54,224 bases of DNA, taken from NCBI RefSeq assembly GCF_003149145.1, contig NZ_QGDQ01000031.1, forward strand, positions 1-54,224, written 5' to 3'. The stretch comes from Quadrisphaera granulorum (GTDB taxonomy: Bacteria; Actinomycetota; Actinomycetes; Actinomycetales; Quadrisphaeraceae). A program made the translations under genes and the position numbers. The notes below the pieces were generated by a model, which saw only the letters and a program-made list of their open reading frames with translations, was not told where the DNA came from and did no database searches. Positions 16,189-36,195 of this stretch are shown here, one piece after another (position 1 is the stretch's first letter; each line of letters begins with the position of its first letter).

Positions 16189-16214
16189 GTCAGCCTCGGC
16201 GAGAGGCGCATCGC

Positions 16215-20337: not shown

Positions 20338-21576
20338 CTAGCGCGTCCCGGCGGCCGCGGCGAGCGCCGCGCTGACGTCGGCGACCAGGTCGGCTTCGTC
20401 CTCCAGCCCCACCGACAGCCGCACCGTGCCGTCGGTGATGCCCGCGGCGGCGCGTCCCTCCGGGCCCAGCCGCCGGTGTGTCGTGGTGGCCGGATGGGTG
20501 GCCAGCGACTTCGCGTCACCGAGGTTGTTGGAGATGTCCACCAGCTGCAGCGCGTCGAGGAAGGCGAAGGCGGCCGGCTTGCCCCCCGCCAGCTCGAGGG
20601 TCACCACGGAGCCGCCTCCGCTCATCTGCGCCCGGGCCAGCTCGTGCTGGGGGTGGGAGGGGAGCCACGGGTAGCGCACGGACGCCAGCTGCGCCCCGGC
20701 GCCCGAGCCCGAGTCGGCGAGGCCCTGCAGGTGCTCGGCCACGGCCAGCGCCGACGCGCTCATCCGCTGCACCCTCAGTTCCAGCGTGCCCAGTGACGAG
20801 GCGAGCACCCATGCGGTGAACGGGCTCATCGACGGGCCGGTGTGACGGATGAACGTCTCGAGGTCTTCCGCGGCCTTGCTCGCGAAGAACGCCTCGGTCC
20901 CCAGTACCGCACCACCGAGCGTGCGGCCCTGGCCGTCGAGGTGCTTGGTGGTCGAGTACACGACGACGTCGGCGCCGAGCTCCAGCGGCTTCTGCAGCAC
21001 CGGGGAGGCAAAGACGTTGTCGACGACGACGGTCGCGCCGGCGGCGTGCGCCAGCTGGCTCACCGCACGCACGTCGACGAGCTCCTGCGTGGGGTTGGAC
21101 GGCGTCTCGAAGAACACCGCCGTCGTCGGCCGGGAAAGGGCGCGCTCCCACTGGCCGAGGTCGGCAGCGTCGACGAACTCCACCTCCACGCCCCAGCGGG
21201 GGAGGAGCTCGTCGCAGATGACGTAACAGGAACCGAACAGCGCCCGCGAGGCCACCACCCGGTCACCGTGGCGCACCAGCGACTGCAACGCGGCGTACAC
21301 CGCGGCCATGCCGGTGGACGTCCCCCAGCACCCGGCAGCGCCCTCGATGAGGGCGAGCCTGTCCTGCACCACCTTCACGGTGGGGTTGCTGAACCGTGAG
21401 TAGACGAACCTGTCGTGCTCCCCGGCGAAGGCGGCTTCCGCCTCGGCTGCCGAGGAGTACACGAAGCCGCTGGTGAGGTAGAGCGCCTCGGCGGTCTCAT
21501 CGAAGCCGGAGCGGGCCAGACCTCCGCGCACCGCGCGCGTGGCCGGCCCCCAGCTCTGCTCGTCGAGGGCGGTCAC
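20338..21576 (-). CDS. metZ: O-succinylhomoserine sulfhydrylase (Cys/Met metabolism PLP enzyme)
   Basis: A 412-residue PLP enzyme of the Cys/Met gamma family, matching MetZ in length and sequence. It starts VTALDEQSWGPATRAVRGGL; other landmarks are FVYSRFSNPT, FFETPSNP, VVDNVFASP, the PLP lysine in YSTTKHLDGQGR, and the C-terminal RLSVGLED. MetZ makes homocysteine directly from O-succinyl- or O-acetylhomoserine and sulfide. GTG 21576 overlaps the rhodanese stop by 4 bp (GTGA). As the last gene of the sulfur operon, it would capture the sulfide or persulfide sulfur released by the upstream enzymes. Confidence 0.93.
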   Translation of the reverse strand: MTALDEQSWGPATRAVRGGLARSGFDETAEALYLTSGFVYSSAAEAEAAFAGEHDRFVYSRFSNPTVKVVQDRLALIEGAAGCWGTSTGMAAVYAALQSLVRHGDRVVASRALFGSCYVICDELLPRWGVEVEFVDAADLGQWERALSRPTTAVFFETPSNPTQELVDVRAVSQLAHAAGATVVVDNVFASPVLQKPLELGADVVVYSTTKHLDGQGRTLGGAVLGTEAFFASKAAEDLETFIRHTGPSMSPFTAWVLASSLGTLELRVQRMSASALAVAEHLQGLADSGSGAGAQLASVRYPWLPSHPQHELARAQMSGGGSVVTLELAGGKPAAFAFLDALQLVDISNNLGDAKSLATHPATTTHRRLGPEGRAAAGITDGTVRLSVGLEDEADLVADVSAALAAAAGTR

Positions 21577-21983
21577 GGCTGGCTCCAGGGCAGCCCGTCG
21601 GCGCGCCACCCGACGGCACCGCGGTGCCCGTCGACGGTGGGGCCCTCGAAGCCGTCGAGCACGTTGAACGCCCGCGACCAGCCCGCGTCGGCGGCCGCGT
21701 CGGAGGCACCGACCGACCGCACCCCCGAGCGGCACAGGAACAGCACCGGGACGTCCCGGTCGGGGACGGCGGCCGCGAGCTCGTCGAGGAACCGCGGGTT
21801 CCGCTGCCCGTCCGGGTAGTCGTTCCACTCCAGGAGCACGGGCTGCTTGCCCAGACCGGCGAGGTCTGGCACCCCGACGAAGGTCCACTCGGCCCGGGTG
21901 CGCACGTCGACGAGCACGGCGCCCGGCTCGGTGGTCAGCACGTCCCACGCCTCGCGCGGCGTGACGTCACCGGCGCGGCTCAC
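21573..21983 (-). CDS. Rhodanese-like sulfurtransferase
   Basis: A 136-residue single-domain rhodanese. It has the N-terminal VDVRTRAEW motif and the active-site loop LCRSGVRSVGA with the persulfide-forming cysteine about residue 85, then a C-terminal VLDGFEGP segment. The six-residue loop suits sulfane-sulfur transfer. Rhodaneses fused or adjacent to MetZ are known partners that feed sulfur to it. Start GTG 21983 overlaps the DUF1737 gene by 4 bp, and its stop overlaps metZ by 4 bp, implying coupled translation in a fixed ratio. Confidence 0.9.
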   Translation of the reverse strand: MSRAGDVTPREAWDVLTTEPGAVLVDVRTRAEWTFVGVPDLAGLGKQPVLLEWNDYPDGQRNPRFLDELAAAVPDRDVPVLFLCRSGVRSVGASDAAADAGWSRAFNVLDGFEGPTVDGHRGAVGWRADGLPWSQP

Positions 21984-22210
21984 GGCTGCACCTCGTGAAG
22001 GACCGCGGGAAGCACCACGGCCTGAGCGGTGACAGGCTTGGTCCCGTCGAAGGTGATGGCGGGCGAGCCGTGCAGCACGTACCCCTGCGCCAACGCGGCG
22101 CTGACCTTCTCGCAGAAGGCACGGTCGTCGGTGCCGGTGAGCAGGCGGTAGCGCAGCAGACCACCCATCTCCGCTCCGGTCTGGGCTCCCTGGTCCGCTG
22201 GTGTCGTCAC
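21980..22210 (-). CDS. DUF1737-containing small protein
   Basis: A 76-residue protein whose core LLRYRLLTGTDDRAFCEKVS then AALAQGYVLHGSPAITFDG matches the DUF1737 family (short proteins or domains with an 'RLLTG...F...V...L..GW.LHG' pattern). Function unknown. It has one cysteine (FCEKV). GTG 22210 has AGGAG 6-7 nt upstream. It lies 28 bp after the FAD-oxidase gene and overlaps the rhodanese by 4 bp; its position between rhodanese and oxidase suggests a role in sulfur transfer or as an enzyme subunit (inference). Confidence 0.78.
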   Translation of the reverse strand: MTTPADQGAQTGAEMGGLLRYRLLTGTDDRAFCEKVSAALAQGYVLHGSPAITFDGTKPVTAQAVVLPAVLHEVQP

Positions 22211-22238
22211 GAGGTCTCCTCGAGGTTCTTCTGGATCT

Positions 22239-23666
22239 TCAGAGCGTTGTGTGCGGGTTCAGGATCCCCGATGGGTCCAGCACGGCCTTCAGCTGGTGCT
22301 GCAACTCCACCACGTCGGGCCCGAGCTCGCGGGCGGCATGCTCCCGTTTGAGCGAACCGACCCCGTGCTCCCCGGTGACCGTGCCGCCCAGGCGCAGCGC
22401 GAGGTCGAAGACCGCGTCGGCGGCGGCGAGCACCTGCGGCGGCAGCGGTGCCTCGTCCTGTCCCTCTCCGGAACCACCGGGGACGGCGATGAGCGGGTGC
22501 AGGTTGCCGTCGGCGGCGTGTGCCAGCACGTAGATCTCGGTGCCGGTCTGCGCGGCGATGCCCTGCACGCCTTCCACTGCCTCGGCCAGGCGTGACAGTG
22601 GCACCGCGATGTCCTCGATGAGCACGCGCCCGCGCCGTTCGACGGCCGGCAGCGCGGCGCGGCGGGCGGTGAGCAGCTGCTCGGCGCGTGCCGCGTCGTC
22701 GGTGGCTTCGACGGTCAGCGCCAGGGGCGTGAGCACCGCTGCGAGCCGGTCCAGCTCCCCGCGGGCAGCGGCCGAGGACGAGCCGTCGGTCTGCGCCACG
22801 AGCACCGCGCCGGACGGCCCCGTGGCCACCTGCAGCGCGGTGCCCGCGAGGGCGTCGATGGCGCCGAGCGTGGCGCCGTCCACCAGCTCCAGCACCAGGG
22901 GTCGCACGCCTGAGGACACGACGGCGCTGGCCGCCGCGGCGGCCGCCGCCACGCTGGTGAACGTCGCGAGCGCCGTGGCCACCGCCGCCGGCCGGGGGAG
23001 CAGCCGCAGCGTCGCGCCGACGACGACGCCGAGGGTGCCCTCGGACCCGGTGAACAGGCCGACCAGGTCGTACCCGGTGACGCCCTTGAGGGTGCGTCGC
23101 CCGACGTGGATGAGCCGCCCGTCGGCCAGAACGACGTCGAGCGCGAGCACGGCTTCGCGTGTGACGCCGTGCTTGGCGCCGCGCAGGCCGCCGGCGTTGG
23201 TGGCGATGTTGCCGCCGATGGTGCTGATGCCGACGCTGCCCGGGTCGGGCGCGTACATGAGGCCGTGCTCGGCCGCCGCCGCGTCGAGCGCGGCGGTGAC
23301 GACACCGGCCTCGACGACGGCCACCTGGTCGACGGGGTCGACCTCGACGATCCGGTCCAGCCTCGACAGGTCCAGCACCACCACACCTGCGCCCGCGGTG
23401 GCCGCTCCCGCCAGGCCGCTGCCCGCCCCGCGCACCACCAGCGGCGTGCGCGTGGCGGAGCACCACCGGGCGGTGTGCTGGACCTCGGCGACGCTGCGGG
23501 CGCGCACGACGACGGCGGGGTCGCCCGGCGCGGGCACCCCCGACCTGTCGCGGCGCGCGGCCTGCAGCGCCGTGGGCTCGACGGACCAGTCGCTGAGATC
23601 GGCGACCAGCCCGTCGACGAGCGATGTGTCGACCCCCGCCTCGACCCCGGTGGTCGTGCTCGTCAC
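22239..23666 (-). CDS. FAD-linked 2-hydroxyacid oxidase/dehydrogenase, GlcD type
   Basis: A 475-residue FAD_binding_4 oxidoreductase. It has the PP-loop region TPLVVRGAGSGLAGAATAG, the FAD segment DPGSVGISTIGGNIATNAGG, KHGVTREAVLALDVVLADG and TGSEGTLGVVVGATLRL. The C-terminal domain shows AHAADGNLHP and TGEHGVGSLKRE, with the catalytic/metal histidines. This is the family of glycolate oxidase GlcD and D-lactate/D-2-hydroxyglutarate dehydrogenases, which oxidise 2-hydroxyacids to 2-oxoacids. GTG 23666 overlaps the upstream rhodanese by 4 bp. In this operon a thio-substituted hydroxyacid such as mercaptolactate or sulfolactate is an attractive but untested substrate. Confidence 0.88.
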   Translation of the reverse strand: MTSTTTGVEAGVDTSLVDGLVADLSDWSVEPTALQAARRDRSGVPAPGDPAVVVRARSVAEVQHTARWCSATRTPLVVRGAGSGLAGAATAGAGVVVLDLSRLDRIVEVDPVDQVAVVEAGVVTAALDAAAAEHGLMYAPDPGSVGISTIGGNIATNAGGLRGAKHGVTREAVLALDVVLADGRLIHVGRRTLKGVTGYDLVGLFTGSEGTLGVVVGATLRLLPRPAAVATALATFTSVAAAAAAASAVVSSGVRPLVLELVDGATLGAIDALAGTALQVATGPSGAVLVAQTDGSSSAAARGELDRLAAVLTPLALTVEATDDAARAEQLLTARRAALPAVERRGRVLIEDIAVPLSRLAEAVEGVQGIAAQTGTEIYVLAHAADGNLHPLIAVPGGSGEGQDEAPLPPQVLAAADAVFDLALRLGGTVTGEHGVGSLKREHAARELGPDVVELQHQLKAVLDPSGILNPHTTL

Positions 23667-24097
23667 GCAGCGCCCTCGGCGCGTGTGTCGGTGCTGTCCT
23701 CGGTACCGGGCGTCGTGGGCAGGCCGGCCGCCTTCCACGCGGGGTAGCCGCCGGCGACGTGCACCAGCGCGGTGTAGCCGATGGCGGCCAGCGCCTCGAC
23801 CACCGGCGTCGAGCCGGCCTCGGAGCCGCAGATGACGACGACGGGGGCGTCCGTCGCGGCCAGCGTGGGGACGACCTCGGCCGCGGTGGGCTTGTCGACG
23901 ACGACGGCCTGCGGCAGCTCGCCGTGCTTCTCGCGGTAGCCCGCGGAGCGGACGTCGACGAGGAGCGCGCCGCCCGCGACGGCGGCTCCGGCGATGGCCG
24001 GGGGCACGAGCGGCACGGTCGGCGCGCTGGGCTCGGTGGCTGTGGTGTCGAAGTCGGTGCTGCTGGTGCTGGGAGTGGTGCTCGTCGTCGTGGTCAT
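23663..24097 (-). CDS. Rhodanese-like sulfurtransferase, second copy
   Basis: A 144-residue protein with a Thr/Ser-rich N-terminal tail of about 35 residues and one rhodanese domain: LLVDVRSAGYREKHGELP, then VVVICGSEAGSTPVVEAL with the putative active cysteine (loop CGSEAGS), and ending HVAGGYPAWKAAGLP. The loop differs from that of the other rhodanese (CRSGVRS), so the two are probably not redundant. ATG 24097 overlaps the ketopantoate-reductase-like stop by 4 bp, and its stop overlaps the FAD oxidase by 4 bp. Confidence 0.87.
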   Translation of the reverse strand: MTTTTSTTPSTSSTDFDTTATEPSAPTVPLVPPAIAGAAVAGGALLVDVRSAGYREKHGELPQAVVVDKPTAAEVVPTLAATDAPVVVICGSEAGSTPVVEALAAIGYTALVHVAGGYPAWKAAGLPTTPGTEDSTDTRAEGAA

Positions 24098-25191
24098 GCC
24101 GGGACCTCCGTGAGGGTGGTGGGTGTGGGAAGGGACGGTGGCGTGGATGCCGGCGGGGATGCTGGGAGGGCTGACCGCAGCAGCTCCGCGGGGAGGGGCA
24201 GCGTGCGGGTCTCGCCGGAGAACGCTGCTCCGAGCACGCGCTGGAGGAGCTCGTTGGCCGGGGTGGGCACGCCGTGCAGCCGGCCCAGCTGCACGACGTC
24301 GCCGTTGAGGTGGTCGACCTCCGATCCCGCACCGCGGGCGAAGCTCTGCCAGGTGGAGCGGCGACCGCCGACGTGACCCGGTACCTCCTCGATGACGAGG
24401 GAGCCGGGACCGACACCCACCGCGCGGGGGTCGGCGCGGGGCAGATCCGCTGCGTCGAGCACTGCCTCGGTCTCCCGGACGAGGTCGGCGGCCAGCCGGT
24501 CGAGCAGTTCCCGGTCCGCGGGAGCTTCTCGGGAGAACAGGTCCAGGCCGTTGGTGGCGTTGATGACGAGCTTGTGGGCCTTCCACCGCGCCACGTCCGG
24601 CACGCTCCACGCCGCGAAGCCCGCGGCGTCCAGGTCAGCCGCCACCGCGTGGGCCACGGGATCTGACATGTAGCCCGACTCGCGTGGGGAGCGGCCCACC
24701 CACACGAGGCCGACGCGCGGCCAGCTGGGACTCACGACGACGCCCGGCTCGGTGTGGCTGGCGGCGATCCAGATCGTGGCTCCGAGCACGGTGCGGAAGC
24801 GGCGCAGCGCCGCCCGCTCCGTGCTGACGCCGTTCTGGAACGTCACGAGCGGCAAGTCCGCGCCCACCAGGCCTGCACCGTCGTCCGAGATCACCGGCTG
24901 CCACGCCCAGGCGTCGAGCGCCGCGTCGACGTCCTGCGCCTTGGTGGTGAGCAGCAGCACGTCGTCGTGGCGAAGGTCGACGTCGTCGGGACCGGCGGCC
25001 ACCGGCACCCGGACCACCTCGGTGGACCGTGCACCGGCGCTGGCCGGCCGCAGCACCGTCAGCCCACGGCTGCGCAGCACCTCCACCTGCCGACCACGGG
25101 CGACGAGCACCACCTCGCGCCCGGCGGCGTGCAGCTGCGCAGCCAGCACGGACCCGACGGCGCCAGCGCCGATGACCACGTATCGCGTCAT
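24094..25191 (-). CDS. Ketopantoate-reductase-family NAD(P)H oxidoreductase
   Basis: A 365-residue ApbA/PanE-fold protein. The N-terminus is a Rossmann motif (YVVIGAGAVGSVLAAQL); later come VVLVARG, LLLTTKAQDVDAAL, TFQNGVSTE and the catalytic-lysine region RWKAHKLVINATNG. The C-terminal helical domain ends in a Ser/Pro/Thr-rich tail. Known members reduce 2-oxoacids such as ketopantoate; no pantothenate genes are near, so it probably acts on another 2-oxoacid or hydroxyacid in the sulfur pathway, opposite or alongside the FAD oxidase. ATG 25191 overlaps the transporter ATPase by 4 bp. Confidence 0.85.
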   Translation of the reverse strand: MTRYVVIGAGAVGSVLAAQLHAAGREVVLVARGRQVEVLRSRGLTVLRPASAGARSTEVVRVPVAAGPDDVDLRHDDVLLLTTKAQDVDAALDAWAWQPVISDDGAGLVGADLPLVTFQNGVSTERAALRRFRTVLGATIWIAASHTEPGVVVSPSWPRVGLVWVGRSPRESGYMSDPVAHAVAADLDAAGFAAWSVPDVARWKAHKLVINATNGLDLFSREAPADRELLDRLAADLVRETEAVLDAADLPRADPRAVGVGPGSLVIEEVPGHVGGRRSTWQSFARGAGSEVDHLNGDVVQLGRLHGVPTPANELLQRVLGAAFSGETRTLPLPAELLRSALPASPPASTPPSLPTPTTLTEVPA

Positions 25192-26885
25192 CGGGCCGCC
25201 TCCGCCAGCAGCTGGCCGTCGGGCGCACCGGCTCGGCGGGCCGCGCGTTGCCCTGGCACGGCGGCGAGCAGCTCCGCCGTCGTCGTCGCCTGCGGATCGG
25301 CGAAGACCTGCGCCGTGGGACCGCTCTCCACGATGCGGCCCCGGCTCATGACGGCGACGTCGTGGGAGGTGTCGGCCACCACGGCGAGGTCGTGGGAGAT
25401 GAGCAGGTAGGAGAGCCCCCGCTCGCGCTGCAGCTCCACGAGCAGGTCCAGCACCTGCGCCTGCACGGTGACGTCGAGCGCTGAGACGGGCTCGTCGAGG
25501 AGCACGAGCTCCGGATCGAGCGCGAGGGCCCGAGCGATGGCCACCCGCTGGCGCTGCCCCCCGGAGAGCTCGGCGGGGCGGCGGTCGGCGAAGGCGGCCG
25601 GCAGGTGCACGGCGTCGAGCAGCCGCTCCGCCGCGCGCGCCCGCTCCGCGGAGGTGCCGATGCCGAAGGAGTGCAGCGGCTCGGTGACGAGGTCGCGCAC
25701 GTCCCATCGGGGGTCGAGCGCTGCGAACGGGTTCTGGTGCACCAGCTGGAAGCGGCGGCGCAGCGGCCGCAGCTCCCGCCAGCCGCGGCGGGTGATGTCC
25801 TCGCCGTCGAACACGACGCGTCCCGAGGTCGGCTCCTCCAGGCGCATCGCCACCCGCAGCGCGGTCGTCTTGCCCGAGCCGGACTCGCCCACCAGCGCCA
25901 GCGTGGTGCCGCGCCGCACGCTGAGGCTGACGTCGTCGAGGGCCCGCAGCGTCCGCTGCGCCGCCCCCCGCGGCACGACGAAGTCCTTGGTGACGCCCTC
26001 CAGCCGCAGCACCACGTCGTCAGCCTGGGCCGCCTCTGCCGCCTCTGCCGACACTGCCGCTGCCGGCGCCACCAGCGTCACGCTGCGTGACCCGCCGCCG
26101 GGCGCGTCGGCCACGAGCCGCTGCGTGTACGGGTGCTGTGGGGAGCCGAGCACGTCGACGGGACGTCCGCGTTCGACGATGCGCCCGGCGGACATGACGA
26201 GCACCTCGTCAGCGCGGTCGGTGGCTACGCGCAGGTCGTGGGTGATGATTAGCAGGCCCGTGCCCGACGTCCTCACTAAGCCCTCGAGATGGTCGAGGAT
26301 CTTCTGGGCGACCGTGGTGTCGAGCGCGCTCGTGGGCTCGTCGGCGATGACCAGCTGCGGGTGTGCGGCCAGCGCGGTGGCGATGAGCACGCGCTGGCGC
26401 AGCCCCCCGGAGAGCTGGTGCGGGTGCTGGCGGGCGCGCTGGGCGGGGTCGTCGATGCCCGCGGCGGCCAGGGCCTCGAGCACCTCGGCGGGCACCGACC
26501 GGCGCGGCACGCCGCGGCGGCGCACCGCCTCGGCCACCTGCTCGCCCACCCGCAGCGTCGGGTTGAGTCCCACGGTCGGGTCCTGCGGGACGTACCCCAC
26601 CACCCGGCCGCGCACGGCGCGCCGCTCCCGCTCGGAGACGTGGGTGAGGTCGCGCCCGCCGACGTGCACCGAGCCTGCGACGACGCGGCCGGCGGCCGGC
26701 AGCAGCCCGAGCAGCGCGGAGACCGTGGTGGTCTTGCCGGAGCCGGACTCCCCGACCACCGCGACGACGCGCCCCGCGGGCACGGCGAAGCTCACGCCGT
26801 TGACCGCTTGGTGCTGGCCGTAGGCGACCGACAGGTCGCGCACCTCGACCACGGGGGTGTCCACGGCCAGGGTCGACGTGCTCAT
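25188..26885 (-). CDS. Dpp/Opp-type ABC transporter ATPase, two ABC domains fused
   Basis: A 565-residue protein carrying two complete ABC domains (DppD-DppF fusion). Domain 1: Walker A VVGESGSGKTTTV, signature QLSGGLRQRVLIATAL, Walker B LVIADEPTSALD. Domain 2: Walker A LVGESGSGKTTALR, HQNPFAALDPR, signature ELSGGQRQRVAIARAL, Walker B LVLLDEPVSALD. Both sites look catalytically competent. Fused ATPases of this type energise peptide, nickel or opine importers. ATG 26885 overlaps the permease gene by 4 bp. It forms one importer with the two permeases and binding protein just upstream. Confidence 0.92.
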   Translation of the reverse strand: MSTSTLAVDTPVVEVRDLSVAYGQHQAVNGVSFAVPAGRVVAVVGESGSGKTTTVSALLGLLPAAGRVVAGSVHVGGRDLTHVSERERRAVRGRVVGYVPQDPTVGLNPTLRVGEQVAEAVRRRGVPRRSVPAEVLEALAAAGIDDPAQRARQHPHQLSGGLRQRVLIATALAAHPQLVIADEPTSALDTTVAQKILDHLEGLVRTSGTGLLIITHDLRVATDRADEVLVMSAGRIVERGRPVDVLGSPQHPYTQRLVADAPGGGSRSVTLVAPAAAVSAEAAEAAQADDVVLRLEGVTKDFVVPRGAAQRTLRALDDVSLSVRRGTTLALVGESGSGKTTALRVAMRLEEPTSGRVVFDGEDITRRGWRELRPLRRRFQLVHQNPFAALDPRWDVRDLVTEPLHSFGIGTSAERARAAERLLDAVHLPAAFADRRPAELSGGQRQRVAIARALALDPELVLLDEPVSALDVTVQAQVLDLLVELQRERGLSYLLISHDLAVVADTSHDVAVMSRGRIVESGPTAQVFADPQATTTAELLAAVPGQRAARRAGAPDGQLLAEAAR

Positions 26886-27805: not shown

Positions 27806-27815
27806 GGCGGCCTCC

Positions 27816-28778
27816 TCAGGCGGCCCGGACGGCGAGGCGGCTGACCACCACGCGCGGGTCCAGGAGCGGGTAGATCAGGTCGACGACGAGGTTGACCAGC
27901 ACGAACGCCGCCGCTGCCACCACGACGATGCCCATGACGAGCGGGATGTCCTGCGCGAGCACGGCCTGCTGCGTCAGCCGGCCCAGCCCGGCCCGGGAGA
28001 AGATCGTCTCGGCGACGATCGACGCGGTGACCGCGGAGCCCACGAGCACCCCGAGGATCGTCAGCGCCGGCAGGGCGGCGTTGCGCAGCGCGTGCTTGCC
28101 GTGCACCACGAGCCGGTGCAGCCCCTTGGCATGCGCGGTGGTGACGTACGCCTCGCCGAGGGTGTCCGACAGCCCCCGCACGAGCACCTGGGCGAGCATG
28201 CCCGCGGCGGGGATCGCCATCGTCACGGCGGGCAGCGCCAGCGAGGAGAGCCCCTGCGAGCCGGTCGCGGGGAACAGCCGCAGGTTGAAGGAGAACACCT
28301 GCAGGAGCAGCAGCCCGATGAAGAACGTCGGGAACGACACCCCCAGCGCCGGGACCCGCTCCAGCAGGGTCCGCAGCCACGGGCGGCGCACGTACGTGGC
28401 GACGAACGCCAGCACCAGCCCGGCCACCACGGTGATGGCGATGGCCACCACCGCCAGTGCCAGCGTGCTCGGGAGGTTCTCCTCGAGCAGTGTGCTCACC
28501 GGGGTGCCCAGCGAGACGGACCTGCCGAGGTCACCGGTGAGGGCAGCGCCGAGCATCGTCACGTACTGCACGGGCACCGGCCTGTCGAAGCCGTACTCCG
28601 CCTTGATCGCCGCGACCTGCGCCGCACTCGCAGCGCCCTTCGCGCCGCCCGCGGTGTCCACGAGGATCGACACCGGGTCGCTGGGGAGCAGGTAGAGGAC
28701 GACGAACGTCACGGTGTACGCCGCCCACAGCACGACGACGGCCTGCCCGATGCGTCCCGCGACGTACCGCGCGGTCAC
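27816..28778 (-). CDS. Dpp/Opp-type ABC permease (DppB-like)
   Basis: A 320-residue permease beginning MTARYVAGRIGQAVVVLWAA, with FVVLYLLPSDPVSILVD after the first membrane segment, YGFDRPVPVQYVTML, and the EAA loop AYVTTAHAKGLHRLVVHGKH then ALRNAALP. Six membrane segments are expected. This matches DppB/NikB-type proteins. GTG 28778 overlaps the binding-protein stop by 4 bp (GTGA). The importer type can carry peptides, glutathione-like thiols, nickel complexes or opines; here the operon suggests a sulfur compound. Confidence 0.9.
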   Translation of the reverse strand: MTARYVAGRIGQAVVVLWAAYTVTFVVLYLLPSDPVSILVDTAGGAKGAASAAQVAAIKAEYGFDRPVPVQYVTMLGAALTGDLGRSVSLGTPVSTLLEENLPSTLALAVVAIAITVVAGLVLAFVATYVRRPWLRTLLERVPALGVSFPTFFIGLLLLQVFSFNLRLFPATGSQGLSSLALPAVTMAIPAAGMLAQVLVRGLSDTLGEAYVTTAHAKGLHRLVVHGKHALRNAALPALTILGVLVGSAVTASIVAETIFSRAGLGRLTQQAVLAQDIPLVMGIVVVAAAAFVLVNLVVDLIYPLLDPRVVVSRLAVRAA

Positions 28779-30448
28779 TTCGAGATCCAGACGTCGTTGA
28801 GCCGCAGGAAGCTCTCGAGGGTGAACTTCAGGTCGTGCACCGTCGCCGCCGTCGCAGCGGTCTGCACGCGGTCCTGGAGGGGGAAGAGCGCGCCGCTGGA
28901 GATGAGGATCTTCTGGATGTCCGCGAAGACGGCCTTGCGCTTGACCGGGTCGGTCTCGCTGATCTCCTGGGCGAACAGGGTGGTCAGCTGCGCGGCGGTC
29001 TGCGGTTCCTGGTTGTAGGCGCCCGGGCCGGTGCCGGGCTTGACGACGCTCTGGTCGTAGTAGGTGCGCAGGATGTCGGCGTCACCGCGGGTGAAGTAGG
29101 TGGCGGTGAGGTCGAAGTCGCCGCTGTTGCTCGCGGTGGTGAACTCCGCGGGCGTCACCACGCGCTGCACGAGGGTGATGCCCACCTCCCCGAGCTGGCT
29201 CTGCACGAGGTCCCAGCCGGCCCACGGGCCACCGACGACGAGCGTCAGCGACAGGGGCTTGCCGTCCTTGGACCGCGTGCCGTCCGAGCCGGCCACCCAT
29301 CCGGCCTGGTCGAGCAGCGCCTTGGCGCCGGTCGGGTCGTGCTCCAGCAGGGAGGAGTTGTCGGCCCACTGCGGGGTGGTGGAGTCGATGACGCTCTTGG
29401 CCACCGGGTAGCCGTCGTAGAAGACGGTCGAGGCCCACTCGGCCCGGTCGAGGGCCTTCTGCAGGGCCTGACGGACAGCCGGGTCACCGAGGATCCCGTT
29501 GACGTTGGGAATGATGTTGTACGTCAGGCCGGGCAACACGGCGCTCAGCACCGTCGCGCCCGCGGCCTTGACCGAGGTCTGCGCAGCTTCGGACAGCGGG
29601 GTCCGCGGCCACGCGACGTCGATCTGCCCCGAGGTGAGGCTGCCGGTGAGCACGCCCTCCTCGGGGATGAAGGTCACCTCGAGCGCATCGATGTGCGCGG
29701 CGCCGGTGTTGGCGTTGATGCCGGAGCCCCAGGCGTAGTCCGCGCGCTTGGCCAGCTTGATGGACTGCTGCTGCACGTACTCGGTGAGCGTGAACGGCCC
29801 CGACCCGACGTAGTCGCCCTTGGCGCGGGCCTCGGGGGTCTTGCTGTAGGAGGCGGGGGAGAGGATCCCCAGCGTGGTCGTGGCCGTCGCCTGCAGAAAC
29901 GCCGCGTTCGGTGTCGAGAAGTCGACGCGCACCCGAGTCGGTGAGAGCACCGTGGTGCCCGCGTACCCGGAGATGTACGTGGCGCCGAGGGAGGCCTTGG
30001 CACCGAGCGCCTTGATGCCGTCGAGTGCGGTCTTCACGGCGGTGGCGTCGAACTTCGTGCCGTCGCTGAAGGTGACGTCGTCGCGCAGGTCGAAGGTGTA
30101 GCTCTTCGCGTCGGGCGCGACCTCCCACTTCGTGGCGAGCCACGGGACGATCTCACCGGTCTTCGGGTCCTGGTCGGTGAGGGAGTCGACGAGGTTGCGG
30201 TTGATGCTGCGCGACTCGATCCAGAAGTTCTGGTTCGGGTCGAGGTTGCCGTAGACGTCGGAGGTGAACGCCAGGCGCAGCGTGCCGCCCTCGACGATCG
30301 CCGCGGAGGTCGCGGTGCCCGCTGCGGGGTCGGCCTCGAGGGTCTTCGGGTCGACGGCGCAGCTGGACAGCAGCACCGCCAGCGAACCGGCAGCGGTCAG
30401 ACCGAGGAAGGATCTGCGAGAGGGCGCGTGGGACTGCTCGAAGGACAC
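28775..30448 (-). CDS. ABC extracellular solute-binding lipoprotein, family 5
   Basis: A 557-residue SBP family 5 protein. The N-terminus has a twin-arginine-like SRRSFLG followed by a hydrophobic helix and lipobox LSSC (about residue 30), so it may be Tat-exported and lipid-anchored. Family landmarks: GTLRLAFTSDVYGNLDPNQ, NLVDSLTDQDPKTGEIVPWL, KSYTFDLRDDVTFSDGTKF, DYVGSGPFTLTEYV, and GDADILRTYY near the C-terminus. Family 5 proteins bind peptides, glutathione, nickel chelates and similar. GTG 30448 has AGGAG 5 nt upstream. It lies 49 bp after the flavin-dependent dehydrogenase gene, the largest gap in this part of the operon. Confidence 0.9.
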   Translation of the reverse strand: MSFEQSHAPSRRSFLGLTAAGSLAVLLSSCAVDPKTLEADPAAGTATSAAIVEGGTLRLAFTSDVYGNLDPNQNFWIESRSINRNLVDSLTDQDPKTGEIVPWLATKWEVAPDAKSYTFDLRDDVTFSDGTKFDATAVKTALDGIKALGAKASLGATYISGYAGTTVLSPTRVRVDFSTPNAAFLQATATTTLGILSPASYSKTPEARAKGDYVGSGPFTLTEYVQQQSIKLAKRADYAWGSGINANTGAAHIDALEVTFIPEEGVLTGSLTSGQIDVAWPRTPLSEAAQTSVKAAGATVLSAVLPGLTYNIIPNVNGILGDPAVRQALQKALDRAEWASTVFYDGYPVAKSVIDSTTPQWADNSSLLEHDPTGAKALLDQAGWVAGSDGTRSKDGKPLSLTLVVGGPWAGWDLVQSQLGEVGITLVQRVVTPAEFTTASNSGDFDLTATYFTRGDADILRTYYDQSVVKPGTGPGAYNQEPQTAAQLTTLFAQEISETDPVKRKAVFADIQKILISSGALFPLQDRVQTAATAATVHDLKFTLESFLRLNDVWISK

Positions 30449-30497
30449 GGAAGCTCCTGGTGGTGAGGGCTGGATTTCGGGGCGTCAGCGCGCCCGA

Positions 30498-31715
30498 TCA
30501 ACGCGTGAGGGCCCGCGAGCCGAGGGCGATGAGGGCGGTGTCGTCCTGGGGCGGGTGGATGCGCGAACAGAGCACGTCGCGCAGGTGCCGCTGCAACGGG
30601 GAGCGGCGCGACAGGCCCGGGTTGCCCGCGGCACCCACGAGGGTCTCCACCGCGGTGATCGCGGCACGCGTGACCAGCAGCTTCGCGACACCGGAGCGCT
30701 CCAGCGCCTGCTGGCGGTCGGTGCTGCCGGGGGTGCTCTCGTCGACGGCCCGCGCCAGCGACGTGAGGATCACCTCGGCGCCCAGCAACTGCGCCTCCAC
30801 CTCACCGGCCACGGCGCGGATCCGGTCGGTGGTCGCGATGGGGCGTCCCAGCGCGGCGGGCACTCGGTCATGGGCGAAGTCGGTGAACGCGGCCTGTGCG
30901 GCACGTGCGACGCCGAGGTAGAGCGCCGGCAGCCCCAGGTGCAGCGCGTCCACTGGCGCGGCGTTGTTCGGCACCGTGCCCACCGGCGCCCCGGCGAAGT
31001 GGTCGAGCGGCACCTCGACGCCGGAGTAGACGACGTCGTGGGTGCTGGTGGCGCGCATGCCGAGGTGGTCCCACGTCCTGACGACCTCGATGCCCGGGGT
31101 CGGCGTCCCGTCGTCCCGCCGCGCCGGCACCACCACGTGGCCGACGCGGGGCGTCGGCTCGTCGGTGACCGCCCACACCAGGTGGTAGGCGAGTCCCTCG
31201 GAGCCGGTGGCGTAGGCCTTGTGCCCGTCGAGCACCCAGCCGAGTCCGTCACCGCCGCTGGTACCGGCGCGGCGCAGGGTGGTGGCCGGCAGCCCACCGC
31301 GCGCGGGCGCGCCGAGCTCGGGCTCGGCGCGCACCGCGTTGAGCAGGGTGGGCCCCTCGGCCGACTCCCGCAGCAGCCGCTCGAGCAGCCGCTGCGGGAA
31401 GGTGCGGGCGGCCAGGGGGTGCAGGAACACCGTCATGGCGGCCAGCAGCGCCACCGACGGGTCGCCCGCGCCGAGAGCGGTGAACACCCGCACGGCATCG
31501 ACACCCGACAGGTGCCGACCGCCTGCGGTCGCGGTGAGCAGCCCGGCGGAGTGCACTGCGCGCAGTCCCTCCCACGGGAACTCCGCGGTCTCGTCCACCT
31601 GCGGTGCCGTGGCGGCGAGCTGCGCCCGCAGGGCCTCGAGGCGCTCGGGGGAGGTGTCGACGGCGGGCAGCCCGGGTGTTGTTGGTGCGGGTGTCGTGAG
31701 CGCGGGCGCGCTCAC
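30498..31715 (-). CDS. Acyl-CoA-dehydrogenase-fold flavin enzyme, SfnB/DszC-like
   Basis: A 405-residue protein of the acyl-CoA-dehydrogenase fold. It has an N-terminal helical domain (ERLEALRAQLA, GLLTATAGGRHLSGVDAVRV), a middle beta-domain with WVLDGHKAYATGSEGLAYHL and DHLGMRATSTHDVVYSGVEVP, and a C-terminal four-helix domain. The catalytic glutamate loop of true acyl-CoA dehydrogenases is not evident, and the relatives are sulfur-acquisition oxidoreductases (SfnB) and DszC-type flavin monooxygenases that oxidise organosulfur compounds. Sitting next to an SsuD-like monooxygenase in a sulfur operon supports that. GTG 31715 overlaps the LLM gene by 4 bp. Confidence 0.85.
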   Translation of the reverse strand: MSAPALTTPAPTTPGLPAVDTSPERLEALRAQLAATAPQVDETAEFPWEGLRAVHSAGLLTATAGGRHLSGVDAVRVFTALGAGDPSVALLAAMTVFLHPLAARTFPQRLLERLLRESAEGPTLLNAVRAEPELGAPARGGLPATTLRRAGTSGGDGLGWVLDGHKAYATGSEGLAYHLVWAVTDEPTPRVGHVVVPARRDDGTPTPGIEVVRTWDHLGMRATSTHDVVYSGVEVPLDHFAGAPVGTVPNNAAPVDALHLGLPALYLGVARAAQAAFTDFAHDRVPAALGRPIATTDRIRAVAGEVEAQLLGAEVILTSLARAVDESTPGSTDRQQALERSGVAKLLVTRAAITAVETLVGAAGNPGLSRRSPLQRHLRDVLCSRIHPPQDDTALIALGSRALTR

Positions 31716-32887
31716 GAGGCGACTCGTTCGCGGGCGTGCGCCTGCTCGCGTGCGCGCACGACGTCGTCCACCGGCGGTGCGTCGACGACGGACCCGCGCC
31801 GGCCCTGCTCGCGGGCGGCCAGCTCACCGCGCACGAGCGGCAGCACGTAGCGGCCGTAGTCGATGGCGTCGTTGAGGTTGTCGTAGCCGCGGATGGAGAT
31901 GAGGTCGGCGCCGAGGTCGACGTAGTCGAGGATCGCCGCGGCCACCGTGTCCGGTGTCCCGACCAGCGCCGTCGACGCGCCCTGGGCGCCCGTCGCGGTG
32001 GCGGTCGGGAACCACAGGGCACGGTCGTGCAGGTCACCGCGCGCCGCGATGTCGAGCAGGCGCTGGCTGCCGACGTTCTCCGGTCCGGCGCTCGCGGAAC
32101 GGCGGGTTCGCCACAGACCCGCTCCGCCGCGACCGGAGAGCACGTCGAGGGTGGCGCGGGCTCGCTCCCACGCGAGCTCCTCGGTGGGCGCGATGATCGG
32201 CCGGAACGTCACCCACGTGCGCGGGGTGTCGGTGCGGCCGGCGGCTCGGGCGGCCTCGGCGACCCGGCTGATCTGCTCCGCCGTCTCCGCGAGCGGCTCG
32301 CCCCAGAGACCGAAGATGTCGCCGAGGGCACCTCCCACGCGGTACGCGTCGTCGGAGGAGCCCCCCACGGACACCGGGATGGTGCCGTTGACGGGCTGTA
32401 CGCGGGAGACGAAGTCCTCGAAGGAGTAGTACGTGGCGGTGTGGTCGAACGGCTCGGTGGACGTCCAGACCTTGCGCAGGATCTCGATGTACTCCGCCTG
32501 CCGCGCGTACCGCTCGGTCTTGGAGAGGCGGTCTCCCTCGCGGGCCTGCTCCTGGGTGCTGCCCCCGGCGATGAAGTGGACCACTGCGCGACCGCCCGAG
32601 AGCTGGTCGAGCGTGGCCAGGGCCTTGGCCGCCACGGTGGGGTAGATGGTGTTGGGGCGCAGCGCGATGATCGGCTTGATGCGTTCGGTGTGTGCCACCA
32701 CGGTCGCGGCCACGGTGAACGGGTCGTAGGACGGCGAGCCGTACGGCACCAGCGTGTAGTCGAAGCCGGCCTCCTCCAGCGTGCGGGCGTACCGCGCGAG
32801 GTACTTCGGGTCGATCCGGGTGTCGGTGGAGCCGTTGATCTCGTTGGCGGGGTTGACGTTGATCGCGCTGATGAACTCGACGGTCAT
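31712..32887 (-). CDS. LLM-class flavin-dependent monooxygenase, alkanesulfonate monooxygenase-like
   Basis: A 391-residue bacterial-luciferase-like TIM-barrel protein of the SsuD group: NEINGSTDTRIDPKYLARYA, then FDYTLVPYGSPSYDPFTVAA, IKPIIALRPNTIYPTVAAK, LDQLSGGRAVVHFIAGGS, and TERYARQAEYIEILRKVW, then FDHTATYYSFEDF. SsuD uses FMNH2 and O2 to split alkanesulfonates to aldehyde plus sulfite. No flavin reductase gene is adjacent, so FMNH2 must come from elsewhere. ATG 32887 overlaps the sulfurtransferase stop by 4 bp. Confidence 0.88.
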   Translation of the reverse strand: MTVEFISAINVNPANEINGSTDTRIDPKYLARYARTLEEAGFDYTLVPYGSPSYDPFTVAATVVAHTERIKPIIALRPNTIYPTVAAKALATLDQLSGGRAVVHFIAGGSTQEQAREGDRLSKTERYARQAEYIEILRKVWTSTEPFDHTATYYSFEDFVSRVQPVNGTIPVSVGGSSDDAYRVGGALGDIFGLWGEPLAETAEQISRVAEAARAAGRTDTPRTWVTFRPIIAPTEELAWERARATLDVLSGRGGAGLWRTRRSASAGPENVGSQRLLDIAARGDLHDRALWFPTATATGAQGASTALVGTPDTVAAAILDYVDLGADLISIRGYDNLNDAIDYGRYVLPLVRGELAAREQGRRGSVVDAPPVDDVVRAREQAHARERVAS

Positions 32888-33813
32888 CGGGGGGCTCCTG
32901 CAGGCTCAGCGAGGGAGGACGGGGTGGGCTGGGTTCCGGTGGCGACGGGGCGCCCGGGGGTGTTGGACCACTGGCTCCAGGAGCCGGGGTAGAGCGCGCC
33001 GCGCAGACCGGCGAGTTCCAGGGCCAGCACGGTGTGCGAGGCGGTGACACCGGAGCCGCAGTAGGCACCGACGGGCGTCTCGCCGTCGTCGTCCTCCCCG
33101 GTCACCGGCACCCCGACCGACGCGAACGCCTCACGCAGCTGCTCCGGGGTGCGGAACCGGCCGCCGTCGACATGGCTCGCGGTGGGCAGGCTCACCGCCC
33201 CCGGGATATGCCCGCCGACCGGGTCGACCGGCTCGACCTCACCGCGGTACCGCTCCCCGGCGCGGGCGTCGAGGAGCACCCCGCGCTCGGGCAACGCAGC
33301 GGCCTCGTCGATGGTCAGCACCGGCTGGTGCCCCCAGCTCAGCTCCACCGAGCCCGGCGCGGGAGTGACGTCGCCGGTCTCGAGAGGTTGGCCGGCGGCC
33401 TTCCACGCGGACAGGCCGCCGTCGAGCACGCGGACGTCGACGATGCCGGCGTGGCGCAGCAGCCACCACGCGCGGGCCGCGGCGAAGGAGTCCCAGTCGT
33501 CGTAGACGACGACGGCGTCGCCGTCGTGCAGCCCCCAGCGCCGCGCGGAGGCCTGTAGGGCCTCGCGGGTGGGCAGCGGGTGGCGGCCGTCGGCGGGGCC
33601 GTGCTCGGAAGCGGGGACGGCGAGCTCGGTGTCGAGGTCGACGTAGACCGCACCCGGCACGTGGCCCGCGGCGTGCTGATCGCGGCCATCGGCGGCGCCG
33701 AGGCGCCAGCGGACGTCGAGCACGCGAACGGGGGTGCCGTCGGTGGTGCGCCAGCCGCGGGCGGCGGTGGCCGCCAGCTCGGCGGCGTCGATGAGGGGTG
33801 GGCGGAGAGACAC
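32884..33813 (-). CDS. sseA: Two-domain thiosulfate / 3-mercaptopyruvate sulfurtransferase
   Basis: A 309-residue tandem rhodanese. Domain 1 (inactive) has VRVLDVRWRLG, AGHVPGAVYVDLD and VVVYDDWDSFAAARAWWLLR; domain 2 has LLDARAGERYRGEVEPVDPV, GHIPGAVSLP and the active loop AYCGSGVTASHT with the persulfide cysteine. The CGSGVT loop is the 3-mercaptopyruvate-sulfurtransferase type, unlike the CRxGxR loop of thiosulfate sulfurtransferases. GTG 33813 has AGGAG 5 nt upstream. It is the first structural gene of the operon, about 200 nt after the leader peptide. Confidence 0.9.
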   Translation of the reverse strand: MSLRPPLIDAAELAATAARGWRTTDGTPVRVLDVRWRLGAADGRDQHAAGHVPGAVYVDLDTELAVPASEHGPADGRHPLPTREALQASARRWGLHDGDAVVVYDDWDSFAAARAWWLLRHAGIVDVRVLDGGLSAWKAAGQPLETGDVTPAPGSVELSWGHQPVLTIDEAAALPERGVLLDARAGERYRGEVEPVDPVGGHIPGAVSLPTASHVDGGRFRTPEQLREAFASVGVPVTGEDDDGETPVGAYCGSGVTASHTVLALELAGLRGALYPGSWSQWSNTPGRPVATGTQPTPSSLAEPAGAPR

Positions 33814-33984
33814 AGGAGCTCCTGGGTGGGGTGGCCGACAGTGCGGCAGGTGGAGGTACTGCGGGTGGACAGAGGGCATCGCCCGACCGGCGTCGACCTG
33901 TCGCCGGGGCCCTCGCGCTCCTCAGAGCACGCGAAAGCGACCGGCCGGTGCTACCGGGCGGGTGGTGCGGTGGTGCTGGTGGCG

Positions 33985-34003
33985 GACCGCTGCGGCAACG
34001 GTC
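33985..34003 (-). promoter_or_regulatory. Hairpin just after the leader ORF, possible attenuator element
   Basis: On the transcribed (minus) strand GACCGTTG, loop CCG, CAGCGGTC forms an 8-bp stem with one G-U pair. It begins 12 nt after the leader stop codon, where a ribosome stalled or released at the Cys codon would influence folding. Only position and pairing support a role. Confidence 0.4.
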
Positions 34004-34015
34004 GCGGAGGTGGGG

Positions 34016-34102
34016 TCAGCGGCGACAGAGCGCGCTGGCGTGGTGCAGCAGGTCGACGTGGCGACGGCGCACGAGCGACAGCCCAGCGGGCGGCATGACC
34101 AT
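34016..34102 (-). CDS. Leader peptide of the sulfur operon (RHVDL...SALC type)
   Basis: A 28-codon ORF ending in RRRHVDLLHHASALCRR. Short peptides with a C-terminal R-H-V-D-L ... S-A-L-C core are recurrent putative leader peptides upstream of sulfur-assimilation and sulfonate-transport genes in actinobacteria. ATG 34102 has GGGAG 6-7 nt upstream; ATG 34096 is also in frame. The single Cys codon is third from the end, and the ORF precedes sseA by about 200 nt. A likely mechanism is cysteine-responsive translational or transcriptional control: ribosome behaviour at the Cys codon would report the Cys-tRNA supply. The family match is from memory; the mechanism is inferred. Confidence 0.8.
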   Translation of the reverse strand: MVMPPAGLSLVRRRHVDLLHHASALCRR

Positions 34103-34203
34103 GGTGATCTCCCATCGGTCCTGGCGGTAGCACCGGCCCTCGCGGGTGGTTGCTGCGACGTCGACGAGCCAGGTCTCTCGGTCGCTCTGGATGGCTGTGA
34201 GGG

Positions 34204-34233
34204 ACTTTAGGTGGCGACGGCAACGAGTGTCAA
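34204..34233 (-). promoter_or_regulatory. Sigma-70-type promoter of the sulfur operon
   Basis: On the minus strand, TTGACA (34233-34228), an 18-nt spacer, then TAAAGT (34209-34204). Transcription would start near 34197, about 95 nt before the leader-peptide start. It is the best consensus promoter noticed in the window. Confidence 0.65.
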
Positions 34234-34427
34234 CGAGACCGGGCGCCGGGGTGTCGTTCCCTGCTTGACGAGTCCGCGGGTGGTGAGGTGGAATCCGACC
34301 AGTAGGTCACGAGCGTCGACCCAAAGGCCCCGGCTGGTCGACCGGCAACCCCCACCACGCAGGGGTGCCCCGGGTGAGGACCAGGCGTCGCGGAGCGCGG
34401 CGCAAGACCGTGGCGGGGAGAACTCTC

Positions 34428-36169: not shown

Positions 36170-36195
36170 TGGGCGCTGTCCCCTTGGAGACCTCC

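What the first reader, a model, noticed from the sequence alone, without database searches (positions are those of the whole stretch)
20338..34102. Thirteen-gene organosulfur import and desulfurisation operon with its own leader peptide
One transcription unit joins an uptake system, two different flavin enzymes of C-S-cleaving families (SsuD-like and SfnB/DszC-like), three sulfurtransferases, a GlcD-type FAD oxidase, a ketopantoate-reductase-like enzyme, DUF1737 and MetZ. Most junctions are 4-bp stop-start overlaps (seen directly). Each family is known separately, but I do not know of this combination as a described pathway. The logic would be: import, oxidation of the C-S bond, sulfane-sulfur relay through SseA and rhodaneses, then homocysteine formation by MetZ. 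A Dpp-type importer (not the usual SsuABC) suggests a larger or peptide-like sulfur source.
Basis: partly seen in the sequence, partly recalled or inferred. Interest (0 to 1): 0.8.

Follow-up and report, generated by a model that had tools for sequence, protein, structure and literature searches.

The report
Putative SAM- and cysteine-gated sulfur operon
An actinobacterium carries a 13-gene operon that probably imports an organic sulfur compound, frees its sulfur and builds homocysteine from it, behind an unusual RNA control in which a SAM riboswitch sits directly in front of a tiny leader gene that ends in a cysteine codon.

Summary
In detail: 13 co-directional genes (33813/33879 to 20338, minus strand), 9 of 12 junctions exact 4-bp overlaps, behind a 28-codon leader ORF.

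Order is not accidental. Nine genes (LLM-ACAD-SBP-PermB-PermC-ATPase-PanE-SseA-GlcD) stand in one order in 5 of 30 ACAD loci; PanE and SseA are fused in 12 of 22 inspected. The last three (DUF1737-rhodanese-MetZ) form a unit in 19 of 29 DUF1737 loci, SAM-riboswitch-led in 8 of 14 scanned. None of the 30 joins both sets; 5 of 5 congeners show no MetZ match (E 1e-60).

An SsuD-type reading fails: both sulfonate-binding arginines are missing in 16 of 16 aligned sequences. I favour thioether cleavage, mercaptopyruvate-type sulfur transfer and homocysteine synthesis, on when SAM and cysteine are low. Substrate and mechanism are untested.

Of 57 SAM-I sites in 29 genomes, 22 have a short ORF at the aptamer, 16 with a late Cys codon (shuffles: mean 1.1, maximum 4); about half are orthologous copies.

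The parts
34204..34233 (-). sigma-70-like promoter TTGACA-18-TAAAGT
   Evidence: 10 of 12 consensus matches; the only one found in 33700-34600; mean 0.0 in 50 shuffles. A consensus match only, no transcript data.
34109..34197 (-). SAM-I (S-box) riboswitch aptamer, RF00162; its last 8 nt GATGGGAG (3' strand of P1) contain the leader's Shine-Dalgarno-like GGGAG
   Evidence: 53.0 bits against gathering 44.4, E 1.9e-9; E 2.5e-11; 2 of 8 P1 pairs not standard
34016..34102 (-). leader ORF MVMPPAGLSLVRRRHVDLLHHASALCRR, one Cys codon, third from the end
   Evidence: resembles NCBIfam NF042934 'putative leader peptide' (E 2.3e-4, 20.7 bits, below cut-off 27)
33814..34015 (-). 202-nt spacer, C-rich and G-poor in its first 80 nt (C 0.53, G 0.25): candidate Rho loading region
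   Evidence: p 0.018 against random 150-nt stretches; no intrinsic terminator found
32884..33813 (-). SseA: sulfurtransferase with a mercaptopyruvate-type CGSGVT loop
31712..32887 (-). LLM flavin monooxygenase, own subfamily without the SsuD/MsuD sulfonate-binding arginines
30498..31715 (-). acyl-CoA-dehydrogenase-fold flavoenzyme, SfnB/DszC superfamily
28775..30448 (-). substrate-binding protein, SBP_bac_5 (best NCBIfam hit TIGR04028, 267.6 of 468.5 bits)
27816..28778 (-). ABC permease, Dpp/Opp/Nik B type
26882..27805 (-). ABC permease, Dpp/Opp/Nik C type
25188..26885 (-). fused double ABC ATPase (DppD-DppF / YejF / GsiA type)
24094..25191 (-). PanE/ApbA-type 2-oxoacid reductase; fused to SseA in relatives
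23663..24097 (-). single-domain rhodanese Rhd1 (Cys90, CGSEAG)
22239..23666 (-). GlcD-type FAD D-2-hydroxyacid oxidase/dehydrogenase
21980..22210 (-). DUF1737 protein with a conserved Cys
   Evidence: Cys invariant in 25 of 25 rows, all from one order
21573..21983 (-). single-domain rhodanese Rhd2 (Cys84, CRSGVR)
20338..21576 (-). MetZ, O-succinylhomoserine sulfhydrylase
   Evidence: PRK07810 623.5 bits (cut-off 618), TIGR01325 566.6 (cut-off 510.05)
34305..34414 (+). divergent SAM-IV riboswitch aptamer, RF00634
   Evidence: 74.9 bits against gathering 38
34428..37557 (+). divergent SAM-IV-led unit: two CUT1 sugar-type ABC permeases and a binding protein, no ATPase gene seen (start 34428 by eye)

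Best explanation
A composite sulfur-salvage operon made of two separately conserved modules. Module A (LLM, ACAD, Dpp-type importer, PanE, SseA, GlcD, plus Rhd1) imports an organosulfur compound and frees its sulfur. Module B (DUF1737, Rhd2, MetZ) puts reduced sulfur on O-succinylhomoserine to give homocysteine. Inferred chemistry: the two flavin enzymes cleave the C-S bond of an imported thioether (not a plain alkanesulfonate). The three-carbon thiol product is brought to 3-mercaptopyruvate level by the 2-hydroxyacid/2-oxoacid redox pair GlcD and PanE. SseA moves the sulfur onto a thiol as persulfide, and Rhd1, Rhd2 and the DUF1737 cysteine pass it on to MetZ, with methionine and SAM as end products. 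Inferred control: with SAM high, the aptamer's P1 helix covers the leader's ribosome-binding site and transcription stops early, perhaps by Rho in the C-rich spacer. With SAM low the leader is translated; charged Cys-tRNA lets the ribosome finish and leave, while shortage stalls it and lets transcription go on. So the operon is ON only when both SAM and cysteine are low. Shown: gene content, order, conservation, aptamer match, promoter match, leader ORF position. Inferred: substrate, reactions, gating, Rho.
For: Nine module A genes in identical order and strand in 5 of 30 ACAD loci; 0 of 30 hold module B genes or Rhd1. PanE-SseA in one ORF in 12 of 22 loci inspected; loop YCGSGVT in the best SseA match of 19 of those 22 (no match printed for L155, L161, L162; a second, weaker SseA-like match in L160 lacks it). 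An Agrobacterium plasmid locus with annotated sseA, FAD-binding protein, ABC importer, LLMs, acyl-CoA dehydrogenase and msuE. DUF1737-Rhd2-MetZ together in 19 of 29 DUF1737 loci; SAM-I or SAM-IV just upstream in 8 of the 14 such loci that were Rfam-scanned, also L273. SAM riboswitch just before related Dpp-type importers in L164 and L165. SAM-I over the gathering score, with promoter match and leader ORF in register. Tandem recurrence: 16 of 57 against shuffles 1.1, maximum 4. C-rich stretch after the leader in 10 of 10 RR-type leader loci. LLM lacks the sulfonate-binding arginines.
Against: No expression, binding or growth data. Modules A and B are joined in none of 30 other ACAD loci, so the fusion could be a recent accident. 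No Rfam match at gathering score in 7 module A loci of family f36, nor in L032, L159, L160, L163, and a motif scan found no leader of this type in the module A loci fetched by then; 14 of 30 have a LysR relative instead. The leader is below the NF042934 cut-off, has one Cys codon, and that model also gives weak matches in 6 of 14 control genomes. About half of the 16 Cys-leader sites are orthologous copies in congeners, so they are not independent. The isolated RNA does not fold better than shuffles (z 0.83 and 0.37) and its minimum-energy fold is not the aptamer. No flavin reductase lies in the operon, although L161 and L162 have msuE. In R. qingshengii IGTS8 two rhodaneses were down, not up, on an organic sulfur source (PMC8557817, passages). 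GlcD and PanE could act on unrelated hydroxyacids.
Confidence: 0.55

Rival explanations
1. A sulfonate desulfonation operon: an SsuD-like LLM releases sulfite from a sulfonate such as sulfolactate, with SseA and rhodaneses handling thiosulfate.
For: The best solved relatives of the LLM are alkanesulfonate monooxygenases; best NCBIfam hit is the same.
Against: TIGR03565 173.8 of 518.2 bits. SsuD R226, H228 and R297 align to T227, R229 and T299; T or S at the first and T at the last in 16 of 16 aligned rows, window included (three rows have an Arg five residues before the last; the rhizobial LLMs are not in the alignment). The MsuD paper names W195, R225, R296 and A299 of an RGGA loop as the sulfonate-binding motif and reports R296A without sulfite production (PMC8234197, passages). 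No sulfite reductase among the 13 genes.
Confidence: 0.12
2. Import and breakdown of peptide-bound or conjugated cysteine (glutathione or cysteine S-conjugates) by the Dpp/Gsi-type importer.
For: The importer family is Dpp/Gsi/Nik; the rhizobial loci have a DsbA-family / 2-hydroxychromene-2-carboxylate isomerase gene beside it.
Against: No peptidase, gamma-glutamyl hydrolase, deacetylase or aminotransferase among the 13 genes.
Confidence: 0.2
3. The leader ORF is a chance ORF and the control is a plain SAM-I translational switch.
For: Below the NF042934 cut-off with a single Cys codon; at many SAM-I sites in relatives the first gene follows directly.
Against: RRHVDL..C in the right place; 9 of 57 SAM-I sites match an RR-x-(H/F/R)-x-DL pattern, 7 of them also with Cys in the last eight codons, against 0 in every one of 200 shuffle rounds, and 16 of 57 have a late Cys codon against 1.1 (maximum 4); C-rich stretches after the nine and after the window's.
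Confidence: 0.2
4. Modules A and B are accidental neighbours and do not form one pathway.
For: Joined in none of 30 other ACAD loci; the five congeners show no match for MetZ (E 1e-60) or DUF1737 (E 1e-5).
Against: Tight packing with 28 nt between GlcD and DUF1737, one promoter-riboswitch-leader at the head, and a shared sulfur theme.
Confidence: 0.2

Closest known systems
Mycobacterium tuberculosis Mbox (pe20) leader that controls a small uORF (PMC12810186, abstract and outline seen), and B12 riboswitches with uORF translation (PMC11260477, search listing and start of abstract)
   Same: A riboswitch acts on a small upstream ORF; Rho-dependent early stop shown there for the Mbox, here only suggested by a C-rich spacer.
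   Different: Here the aptamer is SAM-I and the uORF is itself a candidate cysteine sensor, so two signals would be read in series; no experiment here.
Cysteine attenuators of Actinobacteria: candidate Cys leader peptides (PMC1262725, passages) and polycysteine leaders of mycobacteria (Canestrari 2020; not held; seen only as a reference in PMC13236596)
   Same: Short ORF with Cys near its stop upstream of sulfur genes, no obvious intrinsic terminator.
   Different: RRHVDL..C type with one Cys codon, placed behind a SAM-I aptamer whose P1 strand overlaps its Shine-Dalgarno sequence.
SfnG/SfnB, DszA/DszC and SsuD/MsuD organosulfur flavoenzymes
   Same: An LLM paired with an acyl-CoA-dehydrogenase-type flavoenzyme beside an importer.
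   Different: No curated cut-off of these families reached; sulfonate-binding arginines absent; tied to PanE-SseA-GlcD.
DUF1737-rhodanese-MetZ unit of the order, often under SAM-I or SAM-IV
   Same: Last three genes of the window, same order.
   Different: Elsewhere it often has its own riboswitch; in the window it is the tail of a 13-gene operon. (Rhodanese-metZ adjacency in mycobacteria is recalled, from no call.)
Rhizobiaceae plasmid loci L161 and L162
   Same: SBP, two permeases, fused-size ATPase, LLM, ACAD; sseA and an FAD-binding gene annotated in L161.
   Different: A second LLM and msuE in both, a molybdopterin oxidoreductase in L161, DsbA-like and TetR genes; no riboswitch search was run on them.

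Membership tests
SAM-I riboswitch (RF00162) | covariance-model score over the curated gathering score | tested here: met
   53.0 bits, gathering 44.4, full model 1-108
SAM-I riboswitch (RF00162) | binds SAM and switches expression | not testable with these tools
   no experiment
NF042934 putative leader peptide | curated score cut-off of 27 bits | tested here: not met
   20.7 bits, E 2.3e-4; 19.8 bits. Filed as resembling, not as member
Ms4527A polycysteine leader (NF042936) | curated cut-off 45 bits | tested here: not met
   12.2 bits; one Cys in the peptide
Alkanesulfonate monooxygenase SsuD (TIGR03565) | score cut-off 518.2 | tested here: not met
   173.8
Alkanesulfonate monooxygenase SsuD/MsuD | R225/R226, R296/R297 and the RGGA sulfonate-binding loop | tested here: not met
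   T227 and T299; TGAQGA at the loop; the Trp of WGEP is kept
SfnB (TIGR04022) | score cut-off 430.9 | tested here: not met
   77.8
DszC (NF043015) | score cut-off 850 | tested here: not met
   40.9
3-mercaptopyruvate sulfurtransferase | CG[S/A]GVT active loop (motif recalled) | tested here: met
   Cys252 CGSGVT
3-mercaptopyruvate sulfurtransferase (PRK11493) | score cut-off 250 | tested here: not met
   144.1
GlcD glycolate oxidase subunit (TIGR00387) | score cut-off 567.9 | tested here: not met
   345.8; Pfam superfamily cut-offs met
MetZ O-succinylhomoserine sulfhydrylase | score cut-offs of PRK07810 (618) and TIGR01325 (510.05) | tested here: met
   623.5 and 566.6
DUF1737 (PF08410) | gathering score 24 | tested here: met
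   71.2
Riboswitch-controlled uORF with Rho-dependent stop | aptamer directly before the uORF, Shine-Dalgarno sequence within the aptamer's end | tested here: met
Riboswitch-controlled uORF with Rho-dependent stop | Rho-dependent termination | not testable with these tools
   C-rich spacer only

The most novel reading that the evidence does not exclude
A two-input RNA gate not met in the searches made: a SAM-I aptamer whose P1 strand holds the ribosome-binding site of a cysteine-sensing leader peptide, so that SAM decides whether the cysteine sensor is read at all. It is used repeatedly in this lineage on operons with C-S-cleaving flavoenzymes. Here it drives a pathway in which a dedicated PanE-SseA-GlcD set turns a thioether-derived thiol acid into sulfane sulfur for direct homocysteine synthesis, with DUF1737 as a small persulfide carrier.
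Probability: 0.35. Interest if true: 0.75.

Novelty: new variant of a known kind. Interest (0 to 1): 0.55.

Why it matters
It gives a testable assignment to three obscure pieces: DUF1737 (a conserved-Cys protein in a unit with a rhodanese and MetZ, often SAM-riboswitch-led), the PanE-SseA fusion, and an LLM subfamily that scores nearest to SsuD but lacks its sulfonate site. It also points to a serial SAM/cysteine RNA gate that recurs in a genus and can be tested with a simple reporter. If true it would explain how some bacteria link the use of an organic sulfur source to both end products of sulfur assimilation.

Tried and rejected
GlcD as a marker for the operon: 79 loci, nearly all without the partner genes; L031, L032 and L069 were the informative ones. 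ACAD was the better marker. SBP as marker in 59 genomes: matches in 53, but the family is large and the best match outside the own genome was 43% identical.

SsuD-type desulfonation: rejected on residues. MFE folding of the leader: no signal above shuffles, and not the aptamer fold. DUF1737 structure: single-sequence model, mean pLDDT 49.5, not used.

Papers: I met no described counterpart of the operon or of the SAM-I plus Cys-leader tandem in the listings and passages of the ten searches; the library holds only open-licence papers and most listed papers were not opened. Of the three DUF1737 papers none was read; by title two concern phages and one Acinetobacter.

Class-wide SAM-I search: 168 of 246 genomes match; 30 loci were given, and one search printed only the bases after the aptamer without turning the loci on the minus strand, so I give no count for the tandem outside the 29 genomes.
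Full report
What is there. On the minus strand, 13 ORFs run from 33813 (or 33879) to 20338. Nine of the 12 junctions are exact 4-bp overlaps; the other gaps are 49, 10 and 28 nt.

The head of the operon. In order on the minus strand: a promoter-like site TTGACA-18-TAAAGT at 34233-34204 (10 of 12 matches, mean 0.0 in 50 shuffles), a SAM-I riboswitch at 34197-34109 (53.0 bits, gathering 44.4), a leader ORF with ATG at 34102, a 202-nt spacer, and SseA. The last eight aptamer bases, the 3' strand of P1, are GATGGGAG; GGGAG is the only Shine-Dalgarno-like stretch I see before the leader (by eye). Two of the eight P1 pairs are not standard. No intrinsic terminator was found in 33700-34600. The spacer is C-rich and G-poor at its start. 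The isolated RNA does not fold better than shuffles (z 0.83 and 0.37), a result against an easy structural reading. On the plus strand a SAM-IV riboswitch (34305-34414, 74.9 bits) leads two CUT1 permeases and a binding protein.

Is the leader real? The peptide resembles NCBIfam NF042934 but misses its cut-off (20.7 against 27 bits), and that model gives weak matches in 6 of 14 control genomes too. In 29 genomes (own included), one search listed 57 SAM-I sites; all 57 were read (56 fetched, plus the window). A 7-50 codon ORF starts 2-12 nt after the aptamer in 22 of 57 (shuffles 5.1); 16 of 57 have Cys in the last eight codons, against a mean of 1.1 and a maximum of 4 in 200 shuffle rounds (two sites, L234 and L261, had under 120 nt left). 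Nine sites match an RR-x-(H/F/R)-x-DL pattern: L219, L222, L230, L231, L244, L250, L254, L260, L266; seven of these also have the late Cys, against none in the shuffles. The window's RRHVDL..C, which that pattern does not catch, makes ten. These ten come from three families of the order (f1, f14, f16). Caution: L230, L231, L250, L254 and L266 precede the same pair of genes in five species of the genus, and L221/L223/L224/L232 and L240/L242 are likewise copies, so the 16 sites make about eight independent cases. Other sites show Cys-rich ORFs (L220, L240, L242) or an 8-codon ORF with Cys-Met (L221, L223, L224, L232). After all ten RR-type leaders an 80-nt C-rich stretch follows; against random 150-nt stretches the per-site p runs from 0.004 to 0.064. 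In L266, another place in the same genome, the tandem leads an O-acetylhomoserine-sulfhydrylase-like gene and an NtaA/DmoA-like LLM, both below their cut-offs: again a likely C-S enzyme with a sulfhydrylase.

Is the gene order accidental? The ACAD was sought in 394 class genomes; 35, the own genome included, match at E 1e-60 or better, with 43 non-own places listed. Thirty ACAD loci were examined: 27 of those 43 places and three plasmid loci. LLM-ACAD-SBP-PermB-PermC-ATPase-PanE-SseA-GlcD stands complete in that order and strand in 5 of 30 (L141, L144, L145, L148, L151); on the ACAD's strand within 13 kb an LLM match is found in 21 of 30, SseA in 17, PanE in 14, GlcD in 11. Several loci end at contig ends, so these are lower bounds; the ABC genes may include matches to other transporters. 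Four loci (L146, L170, L173, L174) show the ACAD with none of the other eight. PanE and SseA are one ORF in 12 of 22 loci inspected. A relative of an alpha/beta-hydrolase-like gene (named by eye) is found in 19 of 30 and of a LysR gene in 14 of 30. In Agrobacterium pAt (L161) the annotated neighbours are sseA, an FAD-binding protein, a molybdopterin oxidoreductase, the importer, two LLMs, the acyl-CoA dehydrogenase and msuE. None of the 30 holds a match to Rhd1, DUF1737, Rhd2 or MetZ at E 1e-8.

The tail. DUF1737 was sought in 198 order genomes: 41 match, own included. Of 29 non-own loci fetched (of 40), 19 have DUF1737, Rhd2 and MetZ together. Twenty of the 29 were scanned with Rfam; 14 of these are such trios, and 8 of the 14 have a SAM-IV (L314, L316, L320) or SAM-I (L323, L328, L336, L338, L340) just upstream; 6 of the 14 have none at gathering score. 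L273 shows the same with SAM-I, and L272 has SAM-I-Rhd2-MetZ, both SAM-I matches being below gathering. The Cys of DUF1737 is invariant in 25 of 25 rows, all from one order. So the tail is often a SAM-controlled homocysteine unit in its own right.

Within the genus. Of five congeners, none shows a MetZ match at E 1e-60 or a DUF1737 match at E 1e-5, and a GlcD orthologue (81%) is found in two, G003 and G005, where it stands with SseA as a pair. Quadrisphaera sp. INWT6 (L069) shows the same pair, so the window is probably from Quadrisphaera (inference). The 13-gene form looks like a local assembly of an old pair, a module A and a module B; loss in the congeners is the alternative.

What the LLM is not. 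In SsuD numbering R226, H228 and R297 align to T227, R229 and T299. In 16 of 16 aligned rows, window included, T or S stands at the first and T at the last, and R229 of an FRP motif is invariant; three rows have an Arg five residues before the last; the rhizobial LLMs were not in the alignment. The MsuD paper (PMC8234197, passages) names W195, R225, R296 and A299 of an RGGA loop as the sulfonate-binding motif and reports R296A without sulfite production. Hence a plain alkanesulfonate is unlikely.

How it most likely works. Import by the Dpp-type system; C-S cleavage of a thioether by the two flavin enzymes with a flavin reductase from elsewhere; GlcD and PanE set the oxidation state of the three-carbon thiol acid; SseA (MST-type loop) makes pyruvate and a persulfide; the rhodaneses and perhaps DUF1737 carry the sulfur to MetZ. 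The PanE-SseA fusion is the best single argument that PanE's substrate is on SseA's path. All reactions are inferred from families. Expression is proposed to need low SAM (leader translated) and low cysteine (ribosome held at the Cys codon). Precedents: a riboswitch that drives a uORF with Rho-dependent stop in M. tuberculosis (PMC12810186, abstract; PMC11260477, listing and start of abstract), and candidate Cys leaders in Actinobacteria (PMC1262725, passages). Omics passages are mixed: Gordonia alkanivorans on dibenzothiophene raises sseA, an LLM, SfnB- and acyl-CoA-dehydrogenase-type genes (PMC11852219); Gordonia NB4-1Y raises several sulfurtransferases on organosulfur (PMC7661421); but R. 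qingshengii IGTS8 lowers two rhodaneses on dibenzothiophene (PMC8557817). None of these passages describes this operon.

Verdict. It is a new variant of known kinds, with two points of real interest: the SAM-I plus cysteine-leader tandem and the PanE-SseA-GlcD module.

Noticed in passing
window 34305-37557 (+): Divergent SAM-IV riboswitch before two CUT1 sugar-type permeases and a binding protein without an ATPase gene: a candidate SAM-repressed importer of unknown substrate back to back with the operon.
   Followed up: partly
L141, L142, L143, L144, L145, L147, L148, L149, L150, L151, L154, L176: PanE and SseA fused in one ORF of 612-726 aa.
   Followed up: yes
L165 5713-16796 (congener G001): Two divergent SAM-IV riboswitches; one leads a Dpp-type importer with an NtaA/DmoA-family LLM and an SfnB-like enzyme, the other what look by eye like a permease and an LLM.
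   Followed up: partly
L164 9246-19900 (G057): Sulfur island: SAM-I before a Dpp-type importer related to the window's, SAM-I before MetF/MetE-like genes (by eye), SAM-IV before a SufS-like cysteine desulfurase, an Rhd1 relative (53%) and two LLMs.
   Followed up: partly
L221, L223, L224, L232: SAM-I aptamer followed by an 8-codon ORF VSxCMxxR before a binding-protein-like gene; L220, L240, L242 have Cys-rich ORFs instead.
   Followed up: no
L266 (G000:C27): A second SAM-I plus RRLHIDL..C leader tandem in the same genome, before an OAH-sulfhydrylase-like gene and an NtaA/DmoA-like LLM.
   Followed up: yes
L321, L322, L332: DUF1737 gene upstream of a SAM-IV riboswitch and an ABC ATPase gene, an alternative context for DUF1737.
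   Followed up: no
window 8990-17993: AraH/AraG-like ABC permease and ATPase, and two amidases on opposite strands (one PRK06565, 1014.8 bits, matching only residues 264-834 of an 836-aa ORF, so its start looks overcalled).
   Followed up: no
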